From contig NZ_JACNMJ010000001.1 in assembly GCF_014526325.1 (NCBI RefSeq), positions 682,001 to 746,000 of the forward strand: 64,000 bases of DNA, written 5' to 3'. Positions 26,958-45,858 of this stretch are shown here, in pieces. The position numbers were made by a program, and so were the translations under genes. Under the pieces are notes generated by a model. That model was not told the origin of the DNA. It made no database searches and worked only from the letters and a program-made list of their open reading frames with translations. Origin of the DNA: Psychroserpens algicola. Lineage in GTDB: Bacteria > Bacteroidota > Bacteroidia > Flavobacteriales > Flavobacteriaceae. The stretch's first letter is position 1; each line of letters opens with the position of its first letter.

Positions 26958-26964
26958 CTTCATT

Positions 26965-26994
26965 AAAAATCCCACCATTTCTGGTGGGATTTTT
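26965..26994 (+). terminator. Intrinsic terminator after tRNA-Asn
   Basis: AAAAATCCCACCA pairs with TGGTGGGATTTTT around a TTTC loop, followed by more T. The hairpin could also act for the convergent operon that ends at 27030. Confidence 0.9.
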
Positions 26995-27029: not shown

Positions 27030-28118
27030 TCATCTTCCTTTCCATATCTTAATCATTTCTGGGTCAAACTTGGCATAACCTCTTCGTTCTGGATCTTCTT
27101 GCAAGTTTAAATAAGTCTTGTAAAAGCGAACTATAGCTGCAAAACTGTATCCATATACACTAGTATTGGTAGGAACAACCATAACCCGTTTATTAGATCT
27201 ACCTGTTTTTTCATAATCGGCACCAGTTCCTGGTAAGGCAGCATATACATTAGTTTTTGTATTATATGCCATTTGCCCAGAATAGGTATGGCAAAGACCT
27301 CTAATCAAAAAATCTTTTACCTCTCTTAGTGTACGAGTAAATCTGCGATTCGAGATGTCACCTGCAGTTCTTGACCTATAGAAAAATAAAGGGTCGTAAC
27401 TAAAATGTTCTTCGGCAAAGGCTCTAGAAAATGTCAATGAAAAACTATCGGTGTCGATATGACTTCCATAACGCTTTCTAGAAAACTCCACCGAATTATA
27501 CACTTCTTGAATAACTTTTTTATACAATCTACTTGCCGCGCAACCCCAAATCCAAATGCGAGTGTCAGTATTAAAAGCATTTATAAAGTCTACCCAATCT
27601 GTAAAATTCATATTGGTGGTGTTAGTGTCTTTTCGTCGTCCATCTTTGTCCCATGGATCTCGCAATCTAGGCGTGACACCTGTATGTTGATATGCCTCCC
27701 TTTGATAAGAGTTTACTAAAACAGGTCCTCCTCGCCAACCATGACCAACTACTGAAAACTCATACACATGACCAAGATTATTCTTTCCTATATTTCTAAT
27801 AAAATCATAAGCGTCTGCGATGGATATGACATTAGTGTCTTGCTGAATAAAATGACGTTCAGAAGAATAATGTACGCTATCATTTATGGCATCATACTCC
27901 TCAGAATGTGTTTCCCAATCTATACCAGTACCATTTGGTGTACCTTCGTCAATTCTTCCAAAGCGCACATCAAATAACACAAATTTGATATTAGAATTAT
28001 TCTGCCATGAACTGTTTTGATCTAATAGCACATTAGCTCTTCGTTTACAAATGGTAGCCATATTCGTTCTGCCATGATGATACTCGTATCCCGCAACTAA
28101 AATGATGTAGGTTTTCAT
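27030..28118 (-). CDS. Uncharacterised protein with caspase-like His-Gly / Gly-Cys motifs
   Basis: The 362-aa protein has no signal peptide or TM segment. It opens with a beta strand (KTYIILVAGYEYHHG). Residues 119-137 read as a strand ending in a His-Gly pair, with His126 in SVVGHGWRGGPVLVNS. About 65 residues later a second strand ends in Gly-Cys, with Cys193 in RIWIWGCAAS. A His-Gly followed by a hydrophobic strand and Gly-Cys is the arrangement of clan CD (caspase-fold) peptidases, so a Cys-His dyad is plausible. That is inference; no specific family is recognised. It is the last gene of the large operon, and its ATG overlaps the stop of the membrane protein gene (ATGA). Confidence 0.8.
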   Translation of the reverse strand: MKTYIILVAGYEYHHGRTNMATICKRRANVLLDQNSSWQNNSNIKFVLFDVRFGRIDEGTPNGTGIDWETHSEEYDAINDSVHYSSERHFIQQDTNVISIADAYDFIRNIGKNNLGHVYEFSVVGHGWRGGPVLVNSYQREAYQHTGVTPRLRDPWDKDGRRKDTNTTNMNFTDWVDFINAFNTDTRIWIWGCAASRLYKKVIQEVYNSVEFSRKRYGSHIDTDSFSLTFSRAFAEEHFSYDPLFFYRSRTAGDISNRRFTRTLREVKDFLIRGLCHTYSGQMAYNTKTNVYAALPGTGADYEKTGRSNKRVMVVPTNTSVYGYSFAAIVRFYKTYLNLQEDPERRGYAKFDPEMIKIWKGR

Positions 28119-28684
28119 GGAATTTGCTGTATTGGTATCTGATGAATTTGAGATCTAGATCGTAATGTTCTCTCAGCCTGTTCTCTAACTTGCGTTGATA
28201 TGGAATCGTTGACATCTTGAATTTGATATGTTCTTACAGGTTGTATTCTAGAATAATCGACGTACCTGAATACCGAAGGATTACTAGCCAATACACCACG
28301 TATATCTGTATTGGGTCTTGTTGGTGGATTGTTATCACCTCTTACATTGTTGTCTTCTAAGGTTTCGACCAGTTGGTTAATAGCAACTTCATATTGTGTT
28401 ACCATTGCTAAAAGCTGTGACATATCTGAAGTTAATGTATTAACCTCAGCGCTCAATTCATCATTTTCGTTAGCAATTGGCAGGCTAAAAAATCCAACAA
28501 TTGCAGTTGATACTAATACTAATGTCATAAAGCCCCATATGGTCTTTACCGCAATACTTCTTGGTTCTTCGCGTTTCAATTCTGAACGCATTAAATAATA
28601 GGTTAATCCTATCATAATTAATGCAAATCCAGATACGCCGTAGCTCAATAGTTCTCCTCCTAATGATTCTAGTAAATTATCCAT
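28115..28684 (-). CDS. Two-TM coiled-coil membrane protein, unknown
   Basis: The 189-aa protein has two membrane helices (about residues 14-32 and 45-67) with a basic-acidic turn between them (RSELKREEP). A coiled-coil-prone stretch follows (about 72-112, ENDELSAEVNTLTSDMSQLL), then a Pro/Asn-rich linker and a polar C-terminus ending in HQIPIQQIP. The topology is probably N-out or N-in with a long soluble tail; the side is not certain. It is the only clear membrane protein of the operon and could anchor the rest. The gene starts 4 nt after the preceding giant gene and overlaps the next by 4 nt. Confidence 0.8.
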   Translation of the reverse strand: MDNLLESLGGELLSYGVSGFALIMIGLTYYLMRSELKREEPRSIAVKTIWGFMTLVLVSTAIVGFFSLPIANENDELSAEVNTLTSDMSQLLAMVTQYEVAINQLVETLEDNNVRGDNNPPTRPNTDIRGVLASNPSVFRYVDYSRIQPVRTYQIQDVNDSISTQVREQAERTLRSRSQIHQIPIQQIP

Positions 28685-28688
28685 TTTT

Positions 28689-31010: not shown

Positions 31011-31012
31011 AA

Positions 31013-33268
31013 TTACCAGATATCGTTAGGAATAGTTATTTTTATATCTTCATTTGTAGTGGAAATCCACTCCGATTTATAGCGATTTCCACTCTTGCTT
31101 TTCGCTTTGTATCGGTACTTATAATTTCGCTTTGAAGCATCAATCATAGGATGTGTGAATCGCAAGGTTTCACCAACCGATTGAAACACTAACTTTTCAA
31201 TGTCATCCGAATCAATTGCGATGTCATTCTCTGAGTCTTCATATACAATTGTGATACTTATTTCTTTGATTTCTAAATCCTCAAAATCAGGAGCATCAAC
31301 TAACGTAGCTTTTATACTTCTTTCGGGTTTAGTATCATCCTTAATCATTAGAATAGGTCCTGTATGTTCTTTCCAAGCGCCTCTAATAATGTTTCCTTCG
31401 GAAGTAATAACAGTATTTCTAAATTCTAAAACTTCTTTTGGTGTCTCTAAACTCGTCACGACAGAAAATGTAGAACTATCTTGATCTTTCGTAAAATTGA
31501 ACTTTTCCTCAATCCATACTGCTCTGGTATGGTCCCAAACACGTAATTCGCTAATAATTTTGGAAGTATTATCCCAATTGGATTTGGTCATTAATTCAAC
31601 TGACCACTTATTTTCAAAAGGATTTGGAATAAAGAAACTGAAATCTGTATGATTGGGTAGCGTTAAGGTATATTCTTCAGAACCTACAATGTAATACTTA
31701 ACTTCAAGATCAATTTTAACAGGATTCAACTTACTATATAACAAAGACAATACTTTTTGATCTTTACCGTCTTCGGTATCCTTCAATAAAAATGTTTGTG
31801 AAAGCAATTTATTATTTGAATCCTTTTCGCTAACAACAACTGTAGTTTCAATGAGGTGTGTGTGATTAAAAATATCGGTATCATCAACTCCAATTTGAAG
31901 TTTGACATTTTCAAAATATTCAGTAGGATTAAAATAAATAAATTCTGAATTGGTCTCTTGCCAATCTACTTCCATCTGAGATGGTAAACCTGTACCTTCA
32001 TTATCTAAGTAGATGGTTGCTTTATATTTATACAGGTATTCGTTTTTTAACTGTCTGGTGTACTTAAAAGTTCCTTTTAATTCGGTTTCCCCTTTATTAA
32101 AAATGGATGTATGGTCAATGTCTTTAGTATTGGTTGTGGCGTCCCAAACTTCGCAATCGATTTTTACGGTTCTAATATTATTAATCGTAAAGGTATCTGC
32201 TGCTAAATCTAGAGTTATAGTTTCTGTTCTAAATGGTAAATCATCAAGCTCTATCCATTTGAGACGATCTTGCATACCGCCAATATCACGAATCATACTT
32301 GATAATAAGGCTTGAGGATAAAACGGATATTTTTTAACTTTTCGTTCTCGAAGATCTACAATCAATTCATTTGTTTGTACCTCATGATTCTCACGAAGAA
32401 TATGAAATGAGCCAGGATGTACCGATGAGTAAATCATCCCAAAAGCTTGAGCAATTCTGTTCTCTATTTTTTTACTGGCGCTCAATGGAGGCACCGAAGG
32501 TTTAAACAAGCGCTTAATAGCTTCCGTTTTTAATTCATTAAGTAGTGTTTTAGAAGCATACTCTGTGACGTCTGGATCTAATTCTTCTATCTCCATTTCT
32601 ACCATACTTGTTTCTTTGAGGTCATCAAGCGTACTTCCTATTTCCTCTCTATAAAACACATAGTTTTTAACTTTCATGTCTTCAAAATGCTTATAAATAC
32701 GATCCCATTTGATGCGCATTTTAGCTTTAAAAGTGGGAGCAATTCCTAAGATATTTAATTCATAGTACACATGTCCAGCGACAAGATCTTCATTAAGTGC
32801 AGCAACAAGACGCTTGGCTTCTTCACCATCGGTTTTAACAACTAAAGCAGCACGATTATCACCAAAAATGGAAGGCGAAACTCCCGATGTGACATACCAA
32901 TCGTCAGGATTAGGATTTTCTCCAGCCGAAGCTAGAATCATATAAACCTTTCCGTCGGTTACAGTTACAGGCATTAAACGTTTGGCTGTTTTTCCCCATT
33001 TCTCTTTGATTTGCTCTTTTGCTTTTTCTAATATGTCTTGAGAAACTTTTAGCGACACTTCCATAGATAAACTCGTATCGATGACTTGTTTGATGTCTTC
33101 GCTAGTGCTGCTCTCAGGCAAAATGGTATAGGCCGATATTGCTGGTCCGGAATCTTTTTGCACAATAGAGGGTTGGATATTTGCGTAATAAAACGTTTCT
33201 GGATCTATATCATCTCTAAAGATGGTTAGATTTCCAACGCCCATAAATGGTGGTTGATAGCTTAACAT
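31013..33268 (-). CDS. Large modular protein, paralog 5 of the operon family
   Basis: The 751-aa protein has no signal peptide. Its N-terminal core includes FRDDIDPETFYYANIQPSI (residues 17-35), a V-x-L strand MEVSLKVSQDIL (69-80), the SPSIFGDNRAALVVKTD block (131-147), YYELNILGIAPTFKAKMRI (168-186) and a helical end with LDDLKETSMVEMEIEELDPD. The C-terminal two thirds consist of beta units, each closing with a Tyr-rich strand and a late Trp, for example YKYRYKAKSKSGNRYKSEW. The final copy is very like a unit in paralog 4. Gaps are 4 nt upstream and 2 nt downstream. No catalytic motif was recognised. Confidence 0.85.
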   Translation of the reverse strand: MLSYQPPFMGVGNLTIFRDDIDPETFYYANIQPSIVQKDSGPAISAYTILPESSTSEDIKQVIDTSLSMEVSLKVSQDILEKAKEQIKEKWGKTAKRLMPVTVTDGKVYMILASAGENPNPDDWYVTSGVSPSIFGDNRAALVVKTDGEEAKRLVAALNEDLVAGHVYYELNILGIAPTFKAKMRIKWDRIYKHFEDMKVKNYVFYREEIGSTLDDLKETSMVEMEIEELDPDVTEYASKTLLNELKTEAIKRLFKPSVPPLSASKKIENRIAQAFGMIYSSVHPGSFHILRENHEVQTNELIVDLRERKVKKYPFYPQALLSSMIRDIGGMQDRLKWIELDDLPFRTETITLDLAADTFTINNIRTVKIDCEVWDATTNTKDIDHTSIFNKGETELKGTFKYTRQLKNEYLYKYKATIYLDNEGTGLPSQMEVDWQETNSEFIYFNPTEYFENVKLQIGVDDTDIFNHTHLIETTVVVSEKDSNNKLLSQTFLLKDTEDGKDQKVLSLLYSKLNPVKIDLEVKYYIVGSEEYTLTLPNHTDFSFFIPNPFENKWSVELMTKSNWDNTSKIISELRVWDHTRAVWIEEKFNFTKDQDSSTFSVVTSLETPKEVLEFRNTVITSEGNIIRGAWKEHTGPILMIKDDTKPERSIKATLVDAPDFEDLEIKEISITIVYEDSENDIAIDSDDIEKLVFQSVGETLRFTHPMIDASKRNYKYRYKAKSKSGNRYKSEWISTTNEDIKITIPNDIW

Positions 33269-33272
33269 GATC

Positions 33273-35552
33273 TTATGAGTTTACATCTTTAATAATTAAA
33301 AATTTGCCCTTCCCTTCTAAATTAGAAACCGTAATTCCATCACCTTGTTCTGGATACAGCGTCATTGCGTAAGAGTAACTATCGTGGTGATCATCTATTC
33401 TTGGAATAAACCAATTAATAGGTTGGCTCGCGTTATCTGAACTCAAAAAGAATTGATGATTTATATTTTGATTTTCATGCTCATAAGTCAGTTCTAAAAC
33501 TGCATTTTGATATTTCTCTCCAATTTTTAATCGACTCACATCAATTTTCACCTGAAGTATTGGTAAGATAACAGTCTGGTCTCCCGAACTGTTTACCCAT
33601 CCACTTTTAGAAAACAAGTTATCACCTATGAGTTTGTATCTGTATTTAAAATCTTGTTTATCTTTATGTAACTGAACCAATTTTGCAGTTACTGATTCCC
33701 AGTCATCTTCAGCAGATAATTCAACTTTATCTTCACTCGTAAATTGACTTTCGGTATCTTCATACTGAAATTCTACAATAATTTTTTTTAAGCTTTGGTC
33801 TGGAGACATGCCTAATTCGACATCTAAATCTAAAGTGTCTTCATATGGATTTGGTGTGAAAATATCTTCAGATTGATTTTGAGAGAAATAGAATTTTTGT
33901 TTAGGCATTTCAATGACTTTTCCATTTTTACTGAAATACTTAACAGTATATTCTATTGGAGCATCAATATTGGTATATAATGCTCTTTCTAATTTCTTTC
34001 CATCAATCTCCTCTGGAGTAAATAATAAGGAGGTTTTAAAATGCTCTGGCGCATCAGGTGTTTTATAATTAACATCAACTTGGATTCCAGTAATCTTATT
34101 ATCTCCAGATAATGAACTTAAGGTTGTATGAGGTTTAAAATTGGCGACCATTAAACCTATCTTTCCAACCTCAACATTAATAAGTCCGTTGGTTTCTTTC
34201 GTAGGTATTCTTAACGGTTCTGAAACCCCTTTGAAGTAGACTTCTGAAGTATATTTAACGACAGCATCGTCTTGTTTAGGTCTTCTAAACAACCATTTAT
34301 CTTTACTTTTAGTCTTATCAAATAGCCATGATTTTGATTTATTTGCAGAATCATATTGAGCTGTTACTTTGACTGAAGACACGTAAGGCGCTTCTTCCCA
34401 AGCTGCATTTACTTGTATAGGAATTTCAACAGTTCCGACGATATCATCAGCTAAGTCGACAATTTTAGTGACATTTTTTTTATTTTCTTCGCTAACATCT
34501 TCTAAGAAATTCATGATGGTAGCTTGAGGTGACATAGGCCACTCAACAACATCACGTTGTGTAAAACGCAACTCTACAAACGATTTCACTTCTTCTTTCA
34601 TGAGTTCTATCATAGAGCTTTTTCGCTCTTCCTCAGTCATACCGTGAATTCTTGATTTTATAATTTCTTTTACCTTTTCTTCAATGAGTTTGATAGCCAT
34701 CGTGCGAAGTTGATTGACATGTTCATCAGAAATTTTAGTAGAACCTTTATTGATTTCAATATTCATCAGACCTTCTTCGGTCATGGTCTCTACAACACTG
34801 CTTACATCAATACGTTCGACATCAGCATCAGAGCAGCCTTGGTCTTGGTTTTTCCAAACCCGATCTACTTTACGCTCAATAGTTGACTCTTGATGAGATC
34901 CTGCCCAAGCTCTAATTTCTAAACTTGGTAACCGAAGTTTTACTTTTAAATCATAACGTGCACTTATGGCTTTGTCTCCTTGCTCTAATGCTTTATACCA
35001 AACCGCAGCACCATCGGCACTTAGTCTAATAGCAAAAGCCGCATTATTATCTCCAATTAAACTTGCTGGACCACCAGCAGAAGACCAAGACACCAAGCCA
35101 CCTTCTTTTTCTTCTAATAAGGTCACCGTACCTTCGGTATATTCTAAGGCACCAAAGACGATTTCTCCCACTTCTGGAACATCAGGTGTTGGAATAGTAT
35201 CTTGCCCTTTAGCCCTTGCAATTAAACCAAGTCGTTCCTTTTCTAGTTTTACGATATCGTGTCGCCTTTGCTCTTGAATTTTCATTTGCTTGAGTTTTTG
35301 AGCGACTTTTGTCTTTTCCTCTTCTGAAATTCCTAAGTTGATATCAAAGTTGATGTATCCACCGGCTAATCCCGATGTTGAAGTATCTGTACCGTTGGCT
35401 TTATCGGTCCAAAACAAACCATTAAATACAGGCATATCACCATCCATACGAATTTGAGGTGTTGAACGTGCTAAGTAGAACATATTTGGGTTTTCATCAT
35501 CTGGGTAAGCGATGATATCGTCTAATACTGATATTTGTGGTAAAGTTGTCAT
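33273..35552 (-). CDS. Large modular protein, paralog 4 of the operon family
   Basis: The 759-aa protein has no signal peptide. Its N-terminal core contains YPDDENPNMFYLARSTPQIR (residues 16-35), GGYINFDINLGISEEEK (64-80), a charged coiled-coil-like stretch (about 80-115), the GPASLIGDNNAAFAIRLSAD block (161-180), RYDLKVKLRLPSLEIRA (199-215) and an amphipathic region (about 280-320). Beta units follow from about residue 380, including FKYRYKLIGDNLFSKSGW. SLIGDNNAAFAIRL here against SIFGDNRAALVVKT in paralog 5 shows direct homology. It starts 18 nt after paralog 3 and ends 4 nt before paralog 5. Confidence 0.85.
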   Translation of the reverse strand: MTTLPQISVLDDIIAYPDDENPNMFYLARSTPQIRMDGDMPVFNGLFWTDKANGTDTSTSGLAGGYINFDINLGISEEEKTKVAQKLKQMKIQEQRRHDIVKLEKERLGLIARAKGQDTIPTPDVPEVGEIVFGALEYTEGTVTLLEEKEGGLVSWSSAGGPASLIGDNNAAFAIRLSADGAAVWYKALEQGDKAISARYDLKVKLRLPSLEIRAWAGSHQESTIERKVDRVWKNQDQGCSDADVERIDVSSVVETMTEEGLMNIEINKGSTKISDEHVNQLRTMAIKLIEEKVKEIIKSRIHGMTEEERKSSMIELMKEEVKSFVELRFTQRDVVEWPMSPQATIMNFLEDVSEENKKNVTKIVDLADDIVGTVEIPIQVNAAWEEAPYVSSVKVTAQYDSANKSKSWLFDKTKSKDKWLFRRPKQDDAVVKYTSEVYFKGVSEPLRIPTKETNGLINVEVGKIGLMVANFKPHTTLSSLSGDNKITGIQVDVNYKTPDAPEHFKTSLLFTPEEIDGKKLERALYTNIDAPIEYTVKYFSKNGKVIEMPKQKFYFSQNQSEDIFTPNPYEDTLDLDVELGMSPDQSLKKIIVEFQYEDTESQFTSEDKVELSAEDDWESVTAKLVQLHKDKQDFKYRYKLIGDNLFSKSGWVNSSGDQTVILPILQVKIDVSRLKIGEKYQNAVLELTYEHENQNINHQFFLSSDNASQPINWFIPRIDDHHDSYSYAMTLYPEQGDGITVSNLEGKGKFLIIKDVNS

Positions 35553-35570
35553 AGTCTTATGGTCTTAATG

Positions 35571-38174
35571 TTAAACTTGTGGGTAGATATATAAATGTTC
35601 TACACCTGTACTTTCACTACTCTTCCATTCTCCTGGAATTGAGGGTTGTAATGTGATATTGGTTTGGCGATATTGGTATTTTCTATTGTCATGATTTGAA
35701 TTTTGTAGCATCTGCTGGACCGTACTAGACATCTCAACAAGATGTCTTGGGTTGGCTCTATTTAATTCATAAGATCCAATGATTTCGCCATCATCGCGTC
35801 TAATTTCTACAAGAACACCGATGATTTTTTTGAAAGGGTCTTTCTCTTCTTCAGACCAAGAGTCCCAATTTTCATATAATGGAGACGTGATGTTAAGGTG
35901 CCACATTTCAGAATCTCCTGTAGCTCGATCTATTACAGATGCCATGATAATCTCTGGACTAATATCTGCTCGCATTCCATGCGGTTCACAGACCAAACTA
36001 TTCCATACCATATTTTCTACTGAAAGTTCGTCGATATCTAATGGATTAATAAACACACCCTGTTTATCACCAGCTTTCAGACTTAGCGGCCAGTCTATTC
36101 CGGTGGTGCCTAAATCATAATCTGCATCATAAATAAAATTACCATTTTTAGACAGCATCGTGAGTTCGACGCCTTCAACGTTAACTTCAATAGTTGTGTC
36201 ATTTTTTAAATAGAAACCCGATGGCACATTTCCTTGTTGATGAAAATCTTCAATCTTATCGACAGTAATAGGAATGTTTTTTAGTTTTTTGAAATTAAGC
36301 TCTACATTGATAGGCCTGCTTTTTTTAACCACCAAACCATCTTGGGTCTCTTCTTCTAATTCAAAGTATATTTTACCGATGTCTATGCCGTTGGTTAATA
36401 ACTCATGTTTAAAAGCTTCAAAAGACTCTAAACTATGATCTGCAGTAATTGTAAATCCTGAAGGATTAATTTCGGCTAATGTTTCTGTAATTCTTTGAGA
36501 GAATAATGCCTTATCACTTAAAAACCGTTCTTCTACATTAAAAGAGACGTTTTGATAGCCTCCTAAAACATAATTTTCAACATATTTAATATTTCCTTTG
36601 GAGAGTTCTGATAAATCTCCCATCAAATCCTTTTTCGCTCTAGGGTGGAAATAAGGTTCCATATAAATAGTCATATTGATACGATACTCTTTACTCCCAT
36701 CGTCATCTACATGTTCATATAAATTAAGGTACAATTTGGGTTCTCCAGTGTCGTGATTAACACCAATGCGATACACTTGTGGTAAAAAGAACACCTTATT
36801 TGGGTCATTGGTTAACCTGTAGTAATACGAATGACTTATGTCGCCATTTTCAATTTTATTCTCTTGTTGCCATTTGTATTCCTTAGATTCTAACTCATCA
36901 AAGAACCCTTGAAAAACACTAGCATCTTCACGATCATAAAGTAGGTTAAGTTCACTTGTAATGATTACTTTTTGAGGTTTTGAAGCTTGTGTTCTTTCAG
37001 GTTTAATAGCAAGATCAAGAAGTCTCGGCTGTAAGACGGCATGAAACATTTGTAAGCGAATTGGCTTTGTGCGTTTTAGGTACACCATTTCTGGGTTTGG
37101 TCGACCCACATAACACGTAGTATCAAAGCCGTGCTTTTTTATAATGTTAAATGCCTTGTGTGCACTGTTTTTATCAATTCCGAAATCGAACAACGACCTG
37201 TTACCTTCAACAATTTTCCAGCGTTTACTTATATATTTTACTTGGAGTTTGGAGGTGTTAAAAGCTAGCGCATCTTCGCCTTTAAGTTTCCCAACTGGCG
37301 GATTATTTCCAGAAAGAAAATAGCTGAATGTTTTACCAACAGAGCATCTTCTATCTAATTTATAGTGTTTAATGATATTGAGTGCTTTTTTTGCGTCTTG
37401 ATTGGTTGCAAAATTCATAAACGGTTTGGCACCAAATAAAGCCATCATTCCCGTTTTCTTTTTACCAGAAATTAAAATTCTATTCTGTACTACAATCAAT
37501 TTTGAAGCATCAAACGCTGTACAAGTATCTTGGACCTGAGGCCGTCGTCTAGGCGGTTTAGGTTGTATTCTTGGGTTTGGCGGATTAGGCTTAGGAGGAT
37601 TACTTGCAGGTTTTTGCCACCATACATCTGCCTTAACTACTAGTTTTGATGCTGTACTTGGAGTGACTAATGCTTCATAAATTTGCTCTTTGTCTTCATC
37701 TTTGATAATGGTGTGCGCATAGATATGTTTTAATTCGTTAGGTTTTTGAACAGGCAACATTTGTATGACCTCTAATGGCAAAGTCTTCAAGCTCTCATCA
37801 GATTTATATTGCAATTCAATTTGTACCGTTCTAAAGTCTAGCGGTATGACATTGGATTGAGGATGAAATGCTTTAACAATTATATTGAGATGCAATATCC
37901 CTTCATTATCTTTTGTAAATTGAAATCCCTTTTGACCTGGTAAGCCTCCATTTTCAATAGCATTAGGCAAAAGCTCAAATTGAGGCTGACCATAATTTTT
38001 CTTATTATAGGAATATATTTTATCAGAAATAGGCGCCTCATTTAACATTTGAGTCGCATTATTTTGTAAGGTAAGTGCCTGAAAATTTTTCATGATTGCA
38101 GGTTTTACCATATAACTCAATTTACTTGCCTTATATACTCCAGCTATTTTTGGAGGGTTTGTTTCTTTTGACAT
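35571..38174 (-). CDS. Large modular protein, paralog 3, with two internal 'VGRP'-type modules
   Basis: The 867-aa protein has no signal peptide and differs from the other five in order. After a beta region (80-185) and a Pro-rich linker (189-212) come two related modules (218-286 and 301-366). Each has a start of the form F-[DN]-x-S-K-L, a K-x-x-x-F/L core, A-x-x-A-[LF]-N-I-I-K and a final C-x-VG-[KR]-x, as in DTTCYVGRPNPEMVYL. The family block SYYYRLTNDPNKVFFLPQVY appears only at about 449-468, so the shared core is displaced to the middle. The C-terminus is beta-rich. The function is unknown. Confidence 0.85.
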   Translation of the reverse strand: MSKETNPPKIAGVYKASKLSYMVKPAIMKNFQALTLQNNATQMLNEAPISDKIYSYNKKNYGQPQFELLPNAIENGGLPGQKGFQFTKDNEGILHLNIIVKAFHPQSNVIPLDFRTVQIELQYKSDESLKTLPLEVIQMLPVQKPNELKHIYAHTIIKDEDKEQIYEALVTPSTASKLVVKADVWWQKPASNPPKPNPPNPRIQPKPPRRRPQVQDTCTAFDASKLIVVQNRILISGKKKTGMMALFGAKPFMNFATNQDAKKALNIIKHYKLDRRCSVGKTFSYFLSGNNPPVGKLKGEDALAFNTSKLQVKYISKRWKIVEGNRSLFDFGIDKNSAHKAFNIIKKHGFDTTCYVGRPNPEMVYLKRTKPIRLQMFHAVLQPRLLDLAIKPERTQASKPQKVIITSELNLLYDREDASVFQGFFDELESKEYKWQQENKIENGDISHSYYYRLTNDPNKVFFLPQVYRIGVNHDTGEPKLYLNLYEHVDDDGSKEYRINMTIYMEPYFHPRAKKDLMGDLSELSKGNIKYVENYVLGGYQNVSFNVEERFLSDKALFSQRITETLAEINPSGFTITADHSLESFEAFKHELLTNGIDIGKIYFELEEETQDGLVVKKSRPINVELNFKKLKNIPITVDKIEDFHQQGNVPSGFYLKNDTTIEVNVEGVELTMLSKNGNFIYDADYDLGTTGIDWPLSLKAGDKQGVFINPLDIDELSVENMVWNSLVCEPHGMRADISPEIIMASVIDRATGDSEMWHLNITSPLYENWDSWSEEEKDPFKKIIGVLVEIRRDDGEIIGSYELNRANPRHLVEMSSTVQQMLQNSNHDNRKYQYRQTNITLQPSIPGEWKSSESTGVEHLYIYPQV

Positions 38175-38200
38175 CGTTTTGTGTTTTTTAAAATTCCGGA

Positions 38201-40699
38201 TTAGTTTTCGTCTGCCATTGGATCTGGTAGAGGTGCTTCTTCAGGATTTTTTAGTAATAAAATGCCGCCTTTAATAGTTGCTGGATCTATGTCTATCATT
38301 TGATTAGTACCAGCAAATTTTAAGGTGTATTCAAAGACATTACTTCCTGGACTGAAAGCCATAATTTCAAAAGTTTTCATAAAATCTTCTGATGTAATTC
38401 GAATGGTTTCTTCCTTGAGATATTTGTTTTCTACATCGTTATGCTGCACATTGACATAAACCACTTTCCATTTTGTCCAATCCAACATTCCTCCATCGAT
38501 GGTGAGCGATTTTTGATAACGCTTTAAATCGATTGGATCAATGTTTTCATCACTTGTAGCTGTTTTCCATTCAGATGTTTTTACTAATCCGTCTGTGAAT
38601 TGAGCAAAGTATCGGTATTGAAATTGGTTAGTAGCACCTTCACGTAATCTCATATTCCAATCCCAAGTTTCTGATCCTGAAAACCATTTTGAGAATTCTT
38701 CGTTAACGGCATTAACTTCATCTTTATAGAGAATTTCAACCTTTGCAGAGGTCACATAATTTGGATCCATTAATACATCGAAAGATGCTTTGACACGTCC
38801 TACTAAATCGTCATCAATAACTAGTGTTTCTCTAGTATCTGTTATATAATCTGATTCGCTTTGTGTCCCATCTAAATAAATCCACTTTTTCTTGTATCTG
38901 TAGCTTTTATCTTTATGACCATACATAAAGCATTTCCAATTTCCTAAGGGAGAATCTTGAGTTAAACGTATTTGTTTTTTAGAATCTGGTTTATTGGGTT
39001 CTGAAATGTATTCAAGGTCTACAATTGCTTCTTTAACAACTGCCCAATCGATATCACCAGCACTCACTTTAGTTGTAATAAATCCAAGTTTATCGTATGA
39101 AATATTAAGCACTCTATCACTTATATTATCTAGTACAATTGGAGGTGGTGCATCGGCTGTACCTCTATATGAAATTTTAGCTTCTGCTTTGTAGAAATCT
39201 ATAAGTTCGCCATTGGCGTTTCTAGCCATACTTACTCTAAATGTATGCACTTCGCTTCCGTTTTCGAATAGGAATGACCTTGCATTTTGACGCACAATGC
39301 CTGTTTTATGATCTTTTTGCTTATATGATAAGTTGACAATCACCGAATGGATGTTATCGGCTTCAAAGTCGGCATTAACTTTAACTTGAACTTCCATCAT
39401 TTGAACCTCAGGACTACTAACATCTAATATTTTTACAGCTGCTTTACGCTCGCTATCTGTAAGTTGTGCCAAAAGAGAACCACTAGGGTTGACCTGAAAT
39501 TCTACAGTACTATTCTTTTTAAAATGAAAATTTATATTTGAAATTTTATTTTTTGAAATTTTATTCTTGAAATAATAGGAATGATTTTGGTCTTTTACAT
39601 GGTCGAATTTTTTGGCTTCTTCAGTAGTACTTCCTGGACCAGTTTGAGGCGTGGTTCCTTCTTCAGAGGTCTCTTGATCTTCGATAAATGCGGTTTCAAA
39701 AAATGATTTAATAATGGTATTGGTAACCATATCCATGATATTAGCCATTAACGCTTGTTGCGCTTCTTTTTCTTCTTGGCTTCGTTCACCCGTAACCAGG
39801 TCATCATTAACTTCTACTCTTATCACCTTGTTTTGCCTCATCGTCTCTACCAAATTGTGAATTTCACTTTTGTCGATATCGACTTTACTATCAAAAGTTG
39901 TTGTTTTTTTACTGATGGTGCGTCCTAAAAATTTTCGGGTACGTGTTCGTTTTCCTTGTTTGACATCTCTTATAAACTCATTGTTTTGTGTTTCAAGAAA
40001 GTTATAGATGTCGGTAGATCGTGCAGATACTTTAATTTCCATATTTGCGATATAACCGATGGCCAAACCTGTATAGTTTACAGTAGCTAATAGTGGTGTT
40101 TTTTCACTGTTTCCGTCGTCATCTTTAACACCTTCAGATAGTGCTTGATACATGAGTTGAGATCCTTCAATACCATAAGTTGCATACAGTGACGCAGAAT
40201 TCCAGCCAACCAAAGAAGGTTTTACCTCACCACTTGAGCTTTTAGTAAACGTATCTCCAAAACCAGATAAAACGTTTAAAGTTACTGTACCATTTTTCCA
40301 GTTAGGCGCTGCAATTTTAGGTTCTACTCTTTTTGTTAAAGGTTTTAGACGGTACCTTCTATTATGTCTTCTTATTAATACACTTTTATTATTGTTATTT
40401 AGCATTTTACGCAAATAATCAAGTGCTTTTTTTTCTTCCTCATTTGTGAGTGCTAAGTCGACCGTAAGTAATAATTGACCTAATTGGGTTTCTACTAAAT
40501 CTTTATTAGCACTACTCGCATAAGCTATTTCAGCATTTCTTGAAATCAAATTATAACTAAAAGCCAATTTATTGTCCTGATCTCTTTTAATAAGTGGCGT
40601 TGATCTAATCGCGTAAAACGTATCTCTTTTTTTATGATCAAAGTAGAAGTCTACATTTGATATTCCTGGGATTGTAAATTTATCTGTTAATGAAAGCAT
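38201..40699 (-). CDS. Large modular protein, paralog 2 of the operon family
   Basis: The 832-aa protein has no signal peptide. Core blocks are FDHKKRDTFYAIRSTPLIK (20-38), LGQLLLTVDLALTNEEEKK (73-91), a basic stretch (about 107-123), VKPSLVGWNSASLYATYG (159-176), YTGLAIGYIANMEIKVS (209-225) and an amphipathic segment (about 276-340). A short polar linker (341-362) is followed by about four beta units of roughly 95 residues with conserved closing strands YRYKKKWIYLDGTQSESDY and FQYRYFAQFTDGLVKTSEW. Gaps are 27 nt upstream and 26 nt downstream. No enzyme motif was seen. Confidence 0.85.
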   Translation of the reverse strand: MLSLTDKFTIPGISNVDFYFDHKKRDTFYAIRSTPLIKRDQDNKLAFSYNLISRNAEIAYASSANKDLVETQLGQLLLTVDLALTNEEEKKALDYLRKMLNNNNKSVLIRRHNRRYRLKPLTKRVEPKIAAPNWKNGTVTLNVLSGFGDTFTKSSSGEVKPSLVGWNSASLYATYGIEGSQLMYQALSEGVKDDDGNSEKTPLLATVNYTGLAIGYIANMEIKVSARSTDIYNFLETQNNEFIRDVKQGKRTRTRKFLGRTISKKTTTFDSKVDIDKSEIHNLVETMRQNKVIRVEVNDDLVTGERSQEEKEAQQALMANIMDMVTNTIIKSFFETAFIEDQETSEEGTTPQTGPGSTTEEAKKFDHVKDQNHSYYFKNKISKNKISNINFHFKKNSTVEFQVNPSGSLLAQLTDSERKAAVKILDVSSPEVQMMEVQVKVNADFEADNIHSVIVNLSYKQKDHKTGIVRQNARSFLFENGSEVHTFRVSMARNANGELIDFYKAEAKISYRGTADAPPPIVLDNISDRVLNISYDKLGFITTKVSAGDIDWAVVKEAIVDLEYISEPNKPDSKKQIRLTQDSPLGNWKCFMYGHKDKSYRYKKKWIYLDGTQSESDYITDTRETLVIDDDLVGRVKASFDVLMDPNYVTSAKVEILYKDEVNAVNEEFSKWFSGSETWDWNMRLREGATNQFQYRYFAQFTDGLVKTSEWKTATSDENIDPIDLKRYQKSLTIDGGMLDWTKWKVVYVNVQHNDVENKYLKEETIRITSEDFMKTFEIMAFSPGSNVFEYTLKFAGTNQMIDIDPATIKGGILLLKNPEEAPLPDPMADEN

Positions 40700-40726
40700 G
40701 ATCTTATGTTTTAAAGGTTATTTATC

Positions 40727-43426
40727 TTAATTGATTGTTGTAATTGGCAGCATTAACTGTGGTGAATTTGGAGGTACAACAAAGTTGAGTTCTTCCTGAG
40801 TTCCATCATCAGAAAATAATTTTACTGCTGCATTAAGTGTGATTGTTACAGGCACATTTGGTATGATGGCTGTTTGCTCTAAAGTAGATTCGTTTAAGAA
40901 CAATACACTACTACCAGGATGGTCTTCATCAGTACTTGTTAAGGTCACTTCAATAGCGACTAATTTTCCGCTAAATGTTGTTGCTCCAAGTAACAAAGCC
41001 ACTTTTAAAGTTCTGAAGCCACTATTATCTAGGTTTATAAGCGGTTGTTCGGTATCATAGTTAATCCAATCCCCTTCTAGAAGCCTTCCGTCGTTTAGTA
41101 CAAAGCGACTACGACCATTCCATGCTCTTGGATCGTCTTCTTCAACCAACACTGCGAAAGATTTTTTAGGGTCTTCGGGTGTTAGATTTAAAGTAGTTTC
41201 CTTTTCTTCTGCATCAGCTGTAGCATATTTAATATCAATTAAAGCTTGTTTTATTAAATCGTGGCTTCCAGCTAAATTAGGAGTGATACTAAAAATCCTA
41301 GCTAATGGTCTATCAACAATTACTTGAGAGTCTTTTAAGTTTTCTTCTTCAAATACTAATTTTTCATCTTTAAAGAAAAATTCTGTTCTTAAAAAATAAT
41401 CGTATTGGTTCTCTGTGGGTGGATGAATAAGGTAGCGCTTCATGGTTGCTTCACCTTCTTTAAGAATTGTAGTTCGTCCGTTTCCACCTTTTTTTGGTGC
41501 GAGAAACACCTGTACAGATCGGATTCCTTCATCTTCAAATTGCAATTCTCCTGTTTGGATTTCAACTGGAATAAGCGGTGAATGTGTATCCATATTGATA
41601 CTCAAATCACGTTTAGTTTCATCTTCAAATACTTGAGAAGTTACTTTCGTCTCTGGACTACCGATAATTGAGCCTGTTTTGTGAATAAACTCTACATAAT
41701 AATCATAACTCAATGTTCTGTAGTCATCTACAAAGAATTTAATTTTATCACTAAGATTATTTTTATCTAAGGTTAAACTATGTTCATGTAAGCGTTTTGT
41801 TTTATCACCTTCATCACCTTTATAACCATAGGATAAGTGAACTACGGCTTCTGTAATATCATACTCATCAAAATCGAAACTTGCTCTAACTTCTAATTCA
41901 ATTTCTTTAAAAGGTCCCTCTCCAAGTTTTACTAGTAGTAATTGAGTATCTGTATCAAATGACGTTCCTGCGACAGATAAGGGTCCGTTAGGATGGTATT
42001 TAATTGTTTTGGCTTCAGATTTATTAAATGTAAATTTTCGTTTAACTTGTTCAGATATTTCTCTTCGTCTTAACGTATAACCAACATTAATGTCGACGTC
42101 AAAGGCTTCATCAGTTTCATCCTCTTCGGTATCGTCATCATCGTCGTCGTCTTCATCATCGTCTTCAGTATCAGGAGTTGTAATAGCATCTGATGGTTCT
42201 TGATCATCATTACTTGTTTCATCTGTTTCACCTGTTGCTCCTTCTTGATCTTCAGCGCTATCACCAGTGTCTTCTGTATCTTCATCTTCAGTTTCATCTA
42301 TACCACTGTCATCGTCTTCAGTCTCATCCTCGTCTCCATCTTCGGTATCCTCTCTATCGTTGTCGGTATCTGTTCCGTCAACACTTCCTTCATCTCCTTC
42401 TTCACCATCTCCAGAGTCGTCAGTATTGGTATTGTCTGTTTCTTCTTCAGTATCATCTTCGTCATTAGTTGTAGGTGGATCATCTTGTTCATCACCACCT
42501 GGAGGACCGTCGGCATCGCCACCTTCCCCATCTCTAACTCTATCTGCAATAGTTTCATTTATAGCTGCACTATAATCTTCGGTAGGAATAGCGGTAGCTT
42601 GAAAGATTGTTGGTCCCATTAATTTTTTCACCAATTCAATTCCAGAAGGATCATTAGCTAAAAGGCTAGTTTGTGATTCACCTTGAGCGTATATTGTCTC
42701 TTTAACTTTTATAGAGCCTTCGCTCATGAGTGCTCGAATCATGACATCTATATCAGCACTTGCTGCTATTTTTACATCATCATTTTTTACGCTAGCATCC
42801 AAATCGAAGGTATGGTTCCAGAAGTCTTCAGTGGCTTTAAAATCTACTTCAATCTCAAGATTATAAGCTTTCATAACACCTAAATAGCTAAGGTCATATA
42901 TCACAGAAACTTGAGTTTGCCCTTTTTGTTGAAGCATATTCCACATGGCTTGGGCTGGTTTGTTACTGAGTCGAACTGAAAACACAGCCGTTTGCCTCAA
43001 GTTTAAAGATGGTTTTGTTGAACCCGCTATCGTTACTTTTAAATCTTCTGTATTATTTTCGTCTGAGCCATCAGTTCCAAACATGACGAGTTTTACATCG
43101 CCATCTTTAAAAGGCACTAAAGAGAGGTTAACGCCATCACCATATTTTGAAACAAGTTCACTTTTAATGGCTTCAAATTTATCTTGTGAGGGTCCTAGTT
43201 CTACTTGAAGTGTTAGGAAGCCACCAACTCTAGACTCATCATTATCAAAATTGGGGTCGTCCCCTTCTATAATGTCATTATCAGTATACACCATATACTG
43301 AATACCTTTACCATCATCTGCTATTTTGGCTTTTTCTTCTGGTAAACAATAAAAACTATTTGGATCTGTATAATCTTGATAAACGACGCACCCTTGAATA
43401 ACTTCTTGTTTTTCTATATTTAACAT
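40727..43426 (-). CDS. Large modular protein, paralog 1, with long acidic linker
   Basis: The 899-aa protein is the first and longest of the six paralogs. Core blocks are YQDYTDPNSFYCLPEEKAK (16-34), GGFLTLQVELGPSQDKFEAI (68-87), LVPFKDGDVKLVMFG (103-117), TKPSLNLRQTAVFSVRLS (137-154) and VIYDLSYLGVMKAYNLEIEV (175-194). Residues 299-440 are an extreme Asp/Glu/Thr-rich linker. It is probably a flexible, possibly calcium-binding, spacer between the core and a C-terminal half of beta units (from about 445, with VVHLSYGYKGDEGD). No signal peptide is visible. It lies 37 nt downstream of the peptidoglycan-binding protein gene. The function is unknown. Confidence 0.85.
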   Translation of the reverse strand: MLNIEKQEVIQGCVVYQDYTDPNSFYCLPEEKAKIADDGKGIQYMVYTDNDIIEGDDPNFDNDESRVGGFLTLQVELGPSQDKFEAIKSELVSKYGDGVNLSLVPFKDGDVKLVMFGTDGSDENNTEDLKVTIAGSTKPSLNLRQTAVFSVRLSNKPAQAMWNMLQQKGQTQVSVIYDLSYLGVMKAYNLEIEVDFKATEDFWNHTFDLDASVKNDDVKIAASADIDVMIRALMSEGSIKVKETIYAQGESQTSLLANDPSGIELVKKLMGPTIFQATAIPTEDYSAAINETIADRVRDGEGGDADGPPGGDEQDDPPTTNDEDDTEEETDNTNTDDSGDGEEGDEGSVDGTDTDNDREDTEDGDEDETEDDDSGIDETEDEDTEDTGDSAEDQEGATGETDETSNDDQEPSDAITTPDTEDDDEDDDDDDDTEEDETDEAFDVDINVGYTLRRREISEQVKRKFTFNKSEAKTIKYHPNGPLSVAGTSFDTDTQLLLVKLGEGPFKEIELEVRASFDFDEYDITEAVVHLSYGYKGDEGDKTKRLHEHSLTLDKNNLSDKIKFFVDDYRTLSYDYYVEFIHKTGSIIGSPETKVTSQVFEDETKRDLSINMDTHSPLIPVEIQTGELQFEDEGIRSVQVFLAPKKGGNGRTTILKEGEATMKRYLIHPPTENQYDYFLRTEFFFKDEKLVFEEENLKDSQVIVDRPLARIFSITPNLAGSHDLIKQALIDIKYATADAEEKETTLNLTPEDPKKSFAVLVEEDDPRAWNGRSRFVLNDGRLLEGDWINYDTEQPLINLDNSGFRTLKVALLLGATTFSGKLVAIEVTLTSTDEDHPGSSVLFLNESTLEQTAIIPNVPVTITLNAAVKLFSDDGTQEELNFVVPPNSPQLMLPITTIN
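42107..42532 (-). repeat. Low-complexity acidic (Asp/Glu/Thr) coding repeat
   Basis: This stretch codes for residues 299-440 of paralog 1 and is built mainly of GAT, GAC, GAA and GAG codons, imperfectly repeated. It produces long spurious open frames on other strands and frames. Confidence 0.85.
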
Positions 43427-43463
43427 GATTTCTGTTTTTTTTGATTATATATTTTGCTAATTT

Positions 43464-44519: not shown

Positions 44520-44531
44520 TTTAATTAGTTT

Positions 44532-45200
44532 TTATAAAGTTGATAATTGTCCAAGCATTGCCTTGCGAGTGTCTCTATTAAAAACCCCATCAATGGTTAA
44601 ATTTGGAATTGTAGTTTGAAATATTTTAAGAGCCGCCTCGGTTTTTGGCCCGAAAATACCATCTGAAGTACCTGGTTTAAAACCACATAATTTTAGGGCA
44701 TCTTGTAATTGCTCTACTTCAACTCCAGTACTCCCTCGTTTTAAAACTTTAGTGCTTAATTTCATTTTCTTTATAGGTCTTAATCTTCTAAAACCTAAAA
44801 GCTGATTTGCAGCATAAGCAGTTTCACCTACTTGATTGGATTGATTTCCACCAAGTGTGTAAATTCTCGTTTGATCTTGAGAATATCCCATAAATACGCC
44901 AACATGTCCCTTATATGAATTTGGAGATTCTCTCCAAAATATCACAATGTCTCCTGGCTCTGGGTGTGATACCGGAACCCCTACATTTAACCAGGATCTC
45001 GCATTAGCTAATTTTGTAGATTCTAAGCCAGCTTGTTGTGCAATCCAATTCATAAAAATGCTACACCAAGGAGTTTCATCATCGTTTATATGATTAAAGC
45101 CCGATTCTTGTGCATATGATACTATTCTCGGATTATGTTGTCTACCAGGAATCTCTCTCGTTCCAATTTCCTTTGATGCTATGTGAATTAAACTACTCAT
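44532..45200 (-). CDS. TIGR02594-like peptidoglycan hydrolase with peptidoglycan-binding domain
   Basis: The 222-aa protein has an NlpC/P60- or CHAP-type papain-like domain over residues 1-140 with Cys46 in ETPWCSIFMNW, His99 in YKGHVGVFMGY and Asn119 in LGGNQSNQV, the layout of TIGR02594 proteins. A PG_binding_1 domain follows (about 155-215, GVEVEQLQDALKLCG and GIFGPKTEAALKIFQ). It should cut peptidoglycan stem peptides. No signal peptide is present, which is more usual for phage- or secretion-system-linked lysins than for housekeeping hydrolases. It is the second gene of the operon, 12 nt from both neighbours. Confidence 0.9.
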   Translation of the reverse strand: MSSLIHIASKEIGTREIPGRQHNPRIVSYAQESGFNHINDDETPWCSIFMNWIAQQAGLESTKLANARSWLNVGVPVSHPEPGDIVIFWRESPNSYKGHVGVFMGYSQDQTRIYTLGGNQSNQVGETAYAANQLLGFRRLRPIKKMKLSTKVLKRGSTGVEVEQLQDALKLCGFKPGTSDGIFGPKTEAALKIFQTTIPNLTIDGVFNRDTRKAMLGQLSTL

Positions 45201-45212
45201 GGCGTTCTGATA

Positions 45213-45521
45213 TTAGATATTATGATTTGTAAGTTCTCCATCGGCATTGATAATCAATACATCGCTAAGATGAAGTAATGTTAATATTGAAGGCAGCATT
45301 GATAACGGATATGTTACATTGATAAAACCGCCTCGGTTTATAAAAGCAGGTTTGTGTTTTTCCATAGGTTTTGAAGAAAATTGGAAATCGGCAATGATGC
45401 TTTGACTCTGATTTTCATCATCATCTTTATGACTCGTTTCAAATCCATATAACCTTATAGCGGTTTTTGAAGGAGATGTTTGTATAGTGTACCTATGAAT
45501 TTTTGCTGGATAAGTGATCAT
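45213..45521 (-). CDS. Small protein of unknown function, first gene of the large operon
   Basis: The 102-aa protein has no signal or TM segment. It begins MITYPAKIHRYTIQTSPSK, is beta-prone in the first half (AIRLYGFETSH) and ends in a hydrophobic stretch (MLPSILTLLHLSDVLIINADG) that looks like a buried helix-strand rather than a membrane anchor. The gene starts the operon and is 12 nt from the peptidoglycan hydrolase gene, so it is probably part of the same system. No family is recognised. Length, spacing and absence of competing frames support it as real. Confidence 0.7.
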   Translation of the reverse strand: MITYPAKIHRYTIQTSPSKTAIRLYGFETSHKDDDENQSQSIIADFQFSSKPMEKHKPAFINRGGFINVTYPLSMLPSILTLLHLSDVLIINADGELTNHNI

Positions 45522-45858
45522 TGTAGTCTTGTATTTTTACTCGTAAATATTCGTTCTAAATTGTAAGTAAAAGTACTAACAGATTGTATTATATTTGAAA
45601 TATAAAATACTGTTTTTCAGGTGGTTATATTCCTGTATTTAAGAAAGAAAAAACCTTATCAGATATGGGAAATTCCTCTAGCACAAAAAAATAACCCCTT
45701 TAAAAAAAAGGGGTTTTATGACACATAAATAGTTAGTGAATTATAGTATATAATGCTTTACAAGCAACTATTAAAAACTCAAGATGAATTTACTGCATGA
45801 GTTTTTGTTTAGAGGACTTTATTCTATGTCGCATCTTAGGGAAGTTGGTCTTATTAAA
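45522..45858. other. Intergenic region upstream of the large operon
   Basis: These 337 bp contain no gene. They must hold the promoter of the large operon, but no exact TAnnTTTG octamer is found on the minus strand; the nearest is a TACTTTTA-like site about 45 bp before the start at 45521. Two hairpins (45693-45715 and 45773-45806) end the signalling operon on the left. Confidence 0.6.
45693..45715 (-). terminator. Intrinsic terminator of the two-component operon
   Basis: AACCCCTTT and AAAGGGGTT pair around a 5-nt A loop. On the minus strand the hairpin is followed by ATTTTTTTG. It lies about 145 nt after the response regulator stop and separates the signalling operon from the large operon. 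Confidence 0.75.

What the first reader, a model, noticed from the sequence alone, without database searches (positions are those of the whole stretch)
27030..45521. An 18.5-kb, eleven-gene operon with no named counterpart
Seen: eleven minus-strand genes with gaps of 2-37 nt and one ATGA overlap, bounded by tRNA-Asn on one side and a terminator on the other. They encode two peptidoglycan-associated proteins, six giant related proteins, a coiled-coil membrane protein, a possible Cys-His protease and a small protein. Known: TIGR02594-type hydrolases, peptidoglycan-binding domains and YkuD-type enzymes act on the cell wall. Inference: the products form one envelope-linked assembly, with the two wall enzymes making passage or attachment, the giant proteins as modular beta structures, and the last gene as a protease that matures or triggers it. 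I know no described system with this set.
Basis: partly seen in the sequence, partly recalled or inferred. Interest (0 to 1): 0.88.

Follow-up and report, generated by a model that had tools for sequence, protein, structure and literature searches.

The report
Unnamed gene cassette with exchangeable enzymes
Eleven neighbouring bacterial genes form a unit in which large unnamed proteins travel with a wall-cutting enzyme and a probable protease; distant relatives in other bacteria keep the large proteins but swap the enzymes, which suggests an undescribed weapon or self-destruct device.

Summary
The operon is real: eleven minus-strand genes (27030-45521), gaps -4 to 37 nt. Five of the six giants (C1, C2, C4, C5, C6) are one family; D3 is not detectably related. 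No library scanned names the giants or gene A. The set recurs in the same order in five genomes (8 to 11 of 11 genes) and is otherwise rare (2 of 23 genus genomes). One cassette-free relative has the window's flanks together at tRNA-Asn; a distant cassette in another genus sits at the same site. Distant C-family cassettes in four phyla keep C proteins but differ in enzymes: muramidase, GH46, papain, caspase, trypsin, PLD, HBL-type. The genome's only two PG_binding_1 domains are both here. Gene A has a His-Cys pair invariant in 7 of 7 relatives and a weak clan-CD-like model. Best reading: a conflict assembly, C/D proteins as scaffold, exchangeable hydrolases as effectors, acting outward on other organisms or else by self-lysis. 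Function is inferred; no random-gene control was run for the enzyme neighbours.

The parts
45213..45521 (-). G: small protein, 102 aa, first gene; found in G010 and the Bizionia genome, not found in the MAG or the Catalimonadaceae genome
   Evidence: Pfam none
44532..45200 (-). F: CHAP/TIGR02594 wall hydrolase with C-terminal PG_binding_1, 222 aa
43464..44519 (-). E: 351 aa, PG_binding_1 at C-terminus, core with invariant H179 and S210-x-G212-C213 (YkuD-like motif from recall, unproven)
40727..43426 (-). C1: C-family protein, 899 aa, with an acidic low-complexity stretch
38201..40699 (-). C2: C-family protein, 832 aa
35571..38174 (-). D3: 867 aa, not in the C family; tandem-repeat insert (about residues 212-400) present in 3 of 5 orthologs; homolog in a Paracoccus C cassette
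36975..37541 (-). D3 insert: repeats also found in a membrane-anchored PASTA protein of Rhodovulum contractile-injection operons
33273..35552 (-). C4: C-family protein, 759 aa, highest identity of the giants between genomes; modelled as an alpha/beta N-domain plus four beta-sandwich-like modules
31013..33268 (-). C5: C-family protein, 751 aa
28689..31010 (-). C6: C-family protein, 773 aa
28115..28684 (-). B: 189 aa, one strong membrane helix (about 52-70); weak PHROG spanin match only (E 0.014)
27030..28118 (-). A: 362 aa, probable clan-CD-like cysteine protease; H126 and C193 invariant in 7 of 7
45859..46500 (-). response regulator (Response_reg + GerE) upstream of the cassette; absent from the G005 site
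46504..47268 (-). histidine kinase (HisKA_3, HATPase_c)
47220..47879 (-). membrane-protein-like partner of the regulator pair; close ortholog only in the two genus members that carry the cassette
47885..48574 (-). 229-aa protein; its G010 ortholog has a lipoprotein-like start (by eye)
26884..26958 (+). tRNA-Asn at one boundary
26965..26994 (.). terminator-like hairpin between tRNA-Asn and gene A
45693..45715 (-). terminator-like hairpin between the regulator operon and the cassette

Best explanation
A patchily distributed conflict (antagonism) cassette. Shown: a conserved operon with five paralogous large C proteins, one D protein, two proteins with peptidoglycan-binding domains (one a CHAP/TIGR02594 hydrolase), a membrane protein and a protein with an invariant His-Cys pair; distant cassettes keep C proteins and have other enzymes. 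Inferred: the C and D proteins assemble in the cytoplasm into a multi-subunit scaffold; the enzymes are its exchangeable effectors; gene A, a clan-CD-like protease, matures or releases parts; B anchors the assembly to, or opens, the inner membrane; the two-component module beside it turns it on. The assembly most likely leaves the cell, by lysis or an unknown route, and damages other organisms, because some partners elsewhere (GH46, which I recall as chitosanases, an HBL-type protein, an annotated tyrosinase) have no evident target in the producer.
For: Same order in five genomes; rarity: 2 of 97 relatives by C6, 1 of 395 phylum genomes by gene A, 4 of 395 (E up to 0.01) and 7 of 395 (E up to 0.001) by C profiles, own genome included each time. 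Site: G005 has radical-SAM gene, one 255-aa gene, tRNA-Asn and M50 gene together; G465 has M50, tRNA-Asn and a distant C cassette. Enzymes beside C genes: papain and PG_binding_1 + muramidase (G379), probable PG_binding_1 + muramidase (G298; by eye in 64, PG_binding_1 by 102), GH46 (G465), two caspases (G202), caspase fused to PG_binding_1 (Deinococcus), two EAD1 proteins (one with trypsin), an AAA/STAND-like NTPase, PLD, annotated tyrosinase and trypsin (Paracoccus), HBL (Azospirillum). PG_binding_1: 2 of 2 in the window genome and 2 of 2 in G010 lie in the cassette, 1 of 2 in G298, 1 of 3 in G379, 0 of 1 in each of G465, G317, G202; caspases 2 of 3 in G202. A's pair 7 of 7. C family by leave-one-out and hhalign to the Flavobacterium-type C set, E 1.9e-14. 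Regulator membrane protein: close ortholog in 2 of 23 genus genomes, the two with the cassette.
Against: No activity, assembly or export is shown; the exit route is unexplained. No immunity gene was recognised (none was specifically sought). Pararhizobium and Calothrix cassettes have no recognised enzyme among the genes scanned. The cassettes of G379, G298 and G465 are close relatives (C proteins 63-74% identical), so the examples are not all independent. No random-gene control for enzyme neighbours. G010 has another left flank, without tRNA-Asn in the stretches read, and a loss in G005 is not excluded. Weaker homologs of the regulator membrane protein are in 21 of 23 genus genomes, and cassette-free G001 has a diverged regulator module at its radical-SAM gene (71, 77). 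Caspases, EAD1 and the NTPase fit an inward role as well.
Confidence: 0.36

Rival explanations
1. Inward conflict system: a suicide or abortive-infection device. On a stress or phage signal the protease A is activated, the C/D scaffold releases the wall enzymes, B lets them cross the inner membrane, and the cell lyses itself.
For: No signal-peptide-like starts in the window proteins by simple hydropathy; caspases with C genes in G202 and Deinococcus; EAD1-trypsin, EAD1 and AAA/STAND-like genes just upstream of C genes in Paracoccus, a kind of set that PMC7159879 treats as conflict-system parts (passages and section 32 read); gene-A homolog near DrmB and SIR2_2 genes in Ensifer, E homolog in one stretch with SIR2-HerA and an endonuclease gene with a protease-like segment in Rhizobium johnstonii; a two-component module upstream.
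Against: GH46, HBL-type and tyrosinase partners fit self-killing poorly; no NTPase in the window cassette; PADLOC scan of ten of the eleven window proteins empty; the defence neighbours are those of lone A and E homologs, two cases, without C genes.
Confidence: 0.27
2. Envelope-building assembly: the wall enzymes open or modify peptidoglycan for a fixed surface structure made of giant modular proteins, matured by A.
For: PG-binding enzymes, membrane protein B and beta-sandwich-like modules in one operon; one distant C protein in G317 has a hydrophobic N-terminus and an Amidase_2-like neighbour below cut-off.
Against: No signal-peptide-like start or T9SS sorting domain in the window's giants; caspase, PLD, GH46 and HBL partners elsewhere do not suit a structural role; patchy distribution.
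Confidence: 0.13
3. A remnant or derivative of a phage tail or contractile injection system.
For: F's best PHROG is a tail-lysozyme family, 4.8e-32 (5); the D3 insert occurs in a protein of Rhodovulum contractile-injection operons; viral tail-type proteins match the C4 model.
Against: No sheath, tube, baseplate or spike match among the genes scanned; no C relatives found in phage records with two C queries, nor in viral contigs with the C4 patterns; the viral fold matches are generic tandem beta-sandwich proteins, TM-scores up to 0.26; the genome's sheath match is below cut-off and on another contig.
Confidence: 0.05
4. No single machine: an island of loosely related accessory genes.
For: C genes occur with very different partners in distant cassettes; A and E relatives occur without C genes.
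Against: One gene order kept at 42-83% protein identity between two genus members, with all five C paralogs retained in 5 of 5 genomes.
Confidence: 0.06

Closest known systems
Effector-diversified conflict systems of multicellular bacteria (PMC7159879; passages and section 32 read), especially its 'System 3' (trypsin + NucA, with EAD1-recruited lysozyme- and papain-like effectors)
   Same: exchangeable peptidases and peptidoglycan hydrolases; EAD1-trypsin and AAA/STAND-like genes beside C genes in Paracoccus; an endonuclease gene with a protease-like segment in the same stretch as the E homolog of Rhizobium johnstonii
   Different: no NTPase, EAD or endonuclease in the window cassette; its core is the C/D set, which I did not recognise in the passages read
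Contractile injection systems, including cytoplasmic ones that mediate cell death (PMC10066040, abstract read)
   Same: might work alike: cytoplasmic multi-protein assembly with effectors; D3 insert shared with a protein of such operons
   Different: no sheath, tube or baseplate match in the cassette
Phage endolysin/lysis genes
   Same: F matches tail-lysozyme and endolysin PHROGs, E endolysin PHROGs through its PG-binding domain; B is a small membrane protein with a weak spanin match
   Different: giants and A have no PHROG match better than E 0.013
Clan CD cysteine peptidases (C11 clostripain-like; C14 caspase/metacaspase)
   Same: gene A: His after one strand, Cys after a later one, invariant; top four Foldseek hits (three entries) are C11
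   Different: no Foldseek hit at E 0.001 or better, TM-scores about 0.2, no Pfam match; VIA Z 7.2 for a metacaspase tied with vWA-type folds

Membership tests
TIGR02594 / CHAP wall hydrolases (gene F) | profile score above curated cut-off | tested here: met
   TIGR02594 125.4 bits against 70.55; CHAP 39.1 against 26
YkuD L,D-transpeptidase-like (gene E) | profile match and active-site motif | tested here: inconclusive
   No YkuD profile rang at E up to 1; H179 and SxGC invariant in 6 of 6; the likeness to the YkuD motif is recalled
Clan CD cysteine peptidase (gene A) | invariant His and Cys after core strands | tested here: met
   H126 and C193 in 7 of 7 aligned relatives down to 24% identity; strands 118-124 and 182-191 in a weak model
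Clan CD cysteine peptidase (gene A) | caspase-hemoglobinase fold | tested here: inconclusive
   Foldseek best E 7.1e-03, C11; VIA Z 7.2 tied with vWA folds; pLDDT 59, four sequences
Clan CD cysteine peptidase (gene A) | proteolytic activity | not testable with these tools
   needs a bench assay
Contractile injection system / phage tail | sheath, tube and baseplate genes in the locus | tested here: not met
   none among the eleven genes by Pfam or, for ten of eleven, PHROGs; sheath match in the genome is below cut-off and on another contig
NTP-dependent conflict systems (PMC7159879) | NTPase core component | tested here: not met
   no NTPase domain in the eleven genes; AAA/STAND-like gene beside C genes in Paracoccus
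Known anti-phage defence systems (PADLOC) | profile match | tested here: not met
   ten of eleven proteins scanned at E up to 0.1, none; G not scanned
Type IX secretion cargo | C-terminal sorting domain and signal peptide | tested here: not met
   no Por_Secre_tail in the eleven; the same library finds it in 23460-25394; signal peptides judged by simple hydropathy only
C family (defined here) | recognised by a profile built without the group tested | tested here: met
   5 of 5 groups at 109.8-153.6 bits; D3 not

The most novel reading that the evidence does not exclude
An undescribed class of enzyme-carrying assembly, present in at least four phyla (Bacteroidota, Pseudomonadota, Deinococcota, Cyanobacteriota): paralogous C proteins, in several cases with a D protein, form a scaffold onto which cells load interchangeable wall hydrolases, proteases, lipases or pore formers, with PG_binding_1 as one loading or targeting tag and a clan-CD protease as trigger.
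Probability: 0.38. Interest if true: 0.88.

Novelty: categorically new. Interest (0 to 1): 0.72.

Why it matters
If the reading holds, a family of large proteins that the plasmid records seen here annotate only as hypothetical is the shared chassis of a weapon or self-destruct device, and the enzyme next to it hints at what each version attacks. That makes the function testable gene by gene and gives a marker, the C profile, to find more such cassettes.

Tried and rejected
Libraries: no Pfam match at E up to 1 for the window's C proteins, D3 or A; NCBIfam gave C5 and D3 matches near E 0.001, far below their cut-offs; PHROGs nothing better than 0.013 for these; PADLOC none; Pfam on 25 C sequences, best 0.0024 in one member. 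PDB sequence searches with A, C and D profiles: nothing at E below 0.4; with E, the matches up to 0.02 cover the PG-binding part, weaker ones include an unrelated ribosomal protein. D3 against the 707-717-aa proteins of G379, G465 and G298: hhalign E 0.035, probability 1.4; D3 against C, E 0.31: not accepted as homology. Weak D3-profile hits to G202, Pararhizobium and Flavobacterium-type proteins fall on one region and are a lead only; the Paracoccus 744-aa protein is the one clear D homolog outside the window type (blastp E 3e-16). C4 fold search: tandem Ig/Fn3-like, pilin, complement and macroglobulin-type beta-sandwich arrays, low TM-scores, best Z 7.7; a complement-like reading (beta modules, a 698-aa Paracoccus protein with a sub-threshold SQHop match at E 0.076, proteases) was set aside. 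The C N-domain was barely tested by these searches and is not claimed as a new fold. No C relative was found in phages or viral contigs; D3 insert likewise. The scans of viral contigs use short patterns and find close relatives only. Horizontal transfer of the window-type cassette was considered from its even identity to G010 and to the Bizionia record; dropped, because the kinship of that record to the window genome is not told and its core genes were not compared. No integrase was among the genes scanned; attachment repeats were not searched. G466 (fragment at a contig end) was not examined. E of G010 lies across two fetched stretches and was left out of the dN/dS table. Eight paper searches showed no such set in their listings; subscription journals are not held, so it may be in print elsewhere.
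Full report
What is there. The finding's eleven minus-strand ORFs exist as stated, with gaps of -4 to 37 nt, tRNA-Asn at 26884-26958 and a hairpin between it and gene A; a second hairpin at 45715-45693 lies between the cassette and an upstream operon. From 5' to 3' I call the genes G, F, E, C1, C2, D3, C4, C5, C6, B, A. F is a TIGR02594/CHAP hydrolase with PG_binding_1; E has PG_binding_1 after an unnamed core. Giants and A have no match over a curated cut-off in Pfam or NCBIfam and none of note in PHROGs or PADLOC (G was scanned with Pfam only).

The giants. C1, C2, C4, C5 and C6 are paralogs: profiles built without each group recover it at 109.8-153.6 bits (best shuffle 4.6), while D3 scores no better than -0.6 bits. 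So five, not six, are related. AlphaFold2 on C4 with 14 sequences (pLDDT 73, pTM 0.40) gives a mixed helix-strand N-part to about residue 370, then strands in what look like four beta-sandwich modules (the division into four is my reading of the strand list). Fold searches find generic tandem beta-sandwich proteins, aligned mostly over residues 373-750.

Conservation. The genes occur in the same order in the window genome, in the same-genus genome G010 and in an uncultured Bizionia (11 of 11 each); a Flavobacteriaceae MAG has 10 (G not found) and a Catalimonadaceae genome 8 (F, G, B not found). Against G010 the proteins are 42-83% identical, dN 0.12-0.52 with pS 0.66-0.72, near saturation, ten of eleven genes measured; D3, G and B change fastest. 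The neighbouring radical-SAM protein is 87% identical. The set is rare: 2 of 97 relatives including the own genome, 2 of the 23 genus members among them; 1 of 395 phylum genomes, the own one, by gene A; a pattern scan for close relatives of gene A in genome contigs (84,980 species) gave three loci (own or near records may be left out).

Site. In cassette-free G005 the window's left flank (M50 gene, tRNA-Asn) and right flank (radical SAM) lie together with one 255-aa gene between, so cassette, regulators and the 229-aa gene look like one inserted block, though a loss in G005 is possible and this is one relative. In G465, of another genus, an M50 gene and tRNA-Asn are followed by a distant C cassette (the M50 gene there was recognised by eye). 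G010 shares the right flank but not the left, and no tRNA was found in its stretches. The membrane protein beside the kinase has a close ortholog (72%) in 2 of 23 genus genomes, the two with the cassette; 19 of the other 21 have only a homolog of about 25-32%. Related modules stand beside the C cassettes of G298 and G465, divergently. Cassette-free G001 has a diverged module at its radical-SAM gene, so the link is suggestive only.

The wider family. C profiles found 4 of 395 and, when broadened, 7 of 395 phylum genomes, and plasmid searches found Pararhizobium, Paracoccus, Azospirillum, Deinococcus and Calothrix. I listed twelve cassettes: window type (four genomes); Catalimonadaceae; G202 (three C, two caspases); G379 (papain, C, two unnamed, PG_binding_1 + muramidase); G298 (C, unnamed, probable PG_binding_1 + muramidase); G465 (C, unnamed, GH46); G317 (C with hydrophobic N-terminus, unnamed, Amidase_2 below cut-off); Deinococcus (C, unnamed, caspase + PG_binding_1); Paracoccus (EAD1-trypsin, EAD1, AAA/STAND-like, four C, PLD, unnamed, C, D homolog, unnamed, annotated tyrosinase and trypsin); Azospirillum (unnamed, HBL-type, unnamed, C, two unnamed); Pararhizobium and Calothrix (no enzyme recognised in the genes scanned). 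Ten of twelve carry a recognised or probable enzyme or pore former in or beside the C run. Limits: G317 is below cut-off, G298 is by eye, Catalimonadaceae rests on E and A alone and is an ortholog of the window type (nine of eleven if merged), G379, G298 and G465 are close to each other, the Paracoccus tyrosinase and second trypsin rest on annotation, the nSTAND match there is below cut-off (AAA_16 is over it), and no random-gene control was run. Genome-wide counts help: PG_binding_1 occurs twice in G000 and twice in G010, all in the cassette; 1 of 2 in G298 and 1 of 3 in G379; 0 of 1 in each of G465, G317 and G202. Caspases: 2 of 3 of G202 are in the cassette; the window genome and five others searched have none.

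Gene A. A weak model (pLDDT 59, pTM 0.62, four sequences) puts H126 after strand 118-124 and C193 after strand 182-191. The four best Foldseek hits, from three entries, are C11 peptidases, E 0.007-0.04; VIA ties a metacaspase with vWA-type folds at Z 7.2. Homologs in Tsukamurella and Ensifer (24-26% identity) keep both residues: 7 of 7. The Ensifer one lies between a DrmB gene and, further on, a SIR2_2 gene; E homologs in two Rhizobium plasmids keep H179 and SxGC (6 of 6), and one lies in a stretch with SIR2-HerA. No C gene was found near these four by profile.

D3. Its insert is in 3 of 5 orthologs and resembles repeats in a PASTA protein with a membrane helix (by eye) encoded in Rhodovulum contractile-injection operons; I read it as a binding module that comes and goes. 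A Paracoccus protein in a C cassette is a D homolog.

How it may work. Shown: conserved operon, five-paralog family, hydrolase F, invariant pair in A, different enzymes in distant cassettes. Inferred: C and D form a scaffold; enzymes are its effectors; A triggers; B acts at the membrane; the two-component module controls it. Outward antagonism is a little favoured over self-lysis because GH46, HBL-type and tyrosinase partners have no clear target in the producer; caspases, EAD1, NTPase and the defence neighbours of A and E homologs pull the other way. The anatomy cannot decide.

Known or new. It may work like effector-diversified conflict systems (PMC7159879, passages and section 32) or like cytoplasmic injection systems linked to cell death (PMC10066040, abstract), but it lacks the tested defining features of each. 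Eight paper searches listed no such set. I rate the C/D core as categorically new, with the caveats that function is unproven and the search of print is partial.

Noticed in passing
L063 11146-12486 and L064 7077-8408 (Rhodovulum plasmids): PASTA proteins in contractile-injection operons end in the same repeats as the D3 insert; the giants' library scans did not name this repeat.
   Followed up: partly
L066 11523-20744 (Ensifer plasmid): DrmB gene, gene-A homolog, a 992-aa protein and a SIR2_2 protein in a row: a possible defence locus with a Cys-His protein.
   Followed up: partly
L067 11995-24039 (Rhizobium johnstonii plasmid): E homolog in a longer protein (689 aa), followed by an endonuclease gene with a protease-like stretch and by SIR2-HerA.
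   Followed up: partly
window 40727-43426, middle of C1: Acidic low-complexity stretch; the Catalimonadaceae ortholog has a threonine-glycine-proline repeat there instead.
   Followed up: no
L008 2481-3833, L015 11330-12694, L016 5030-6375: A sigma-factor-like and anti-sigma-like gene pair (by eye from ORF starts) lies near the cassette in three of five genomes, and a similar pair in the cassette-free G001 stretch (L059 16024-17382).
   Followed up: no
L032 14334-16246 and L033 14357-16198: Azospirillum and Calothrix C cassettes share two unnamed accessory genes (31% and 34% identity).
   Followed up: partly
G000:C13:212553-212804: Phage-sheath match below cut-off (27.3 against 31.4 bits) in the window genome, unlinked to the cassette; 8 of 10 genomes searched have some sheath match at E up to 0.001, 3 of 10 over the cut-off.
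   Followed up: no
L059, L060, L061, L062 around the radical-SAM gene: Genes beside the radical-SAM gene differ between genus members: one 255-aa gene then tRNA-Asn in G005, a diverged regulator module in G001, other genes in G002 and G006.
   Followed up: partly
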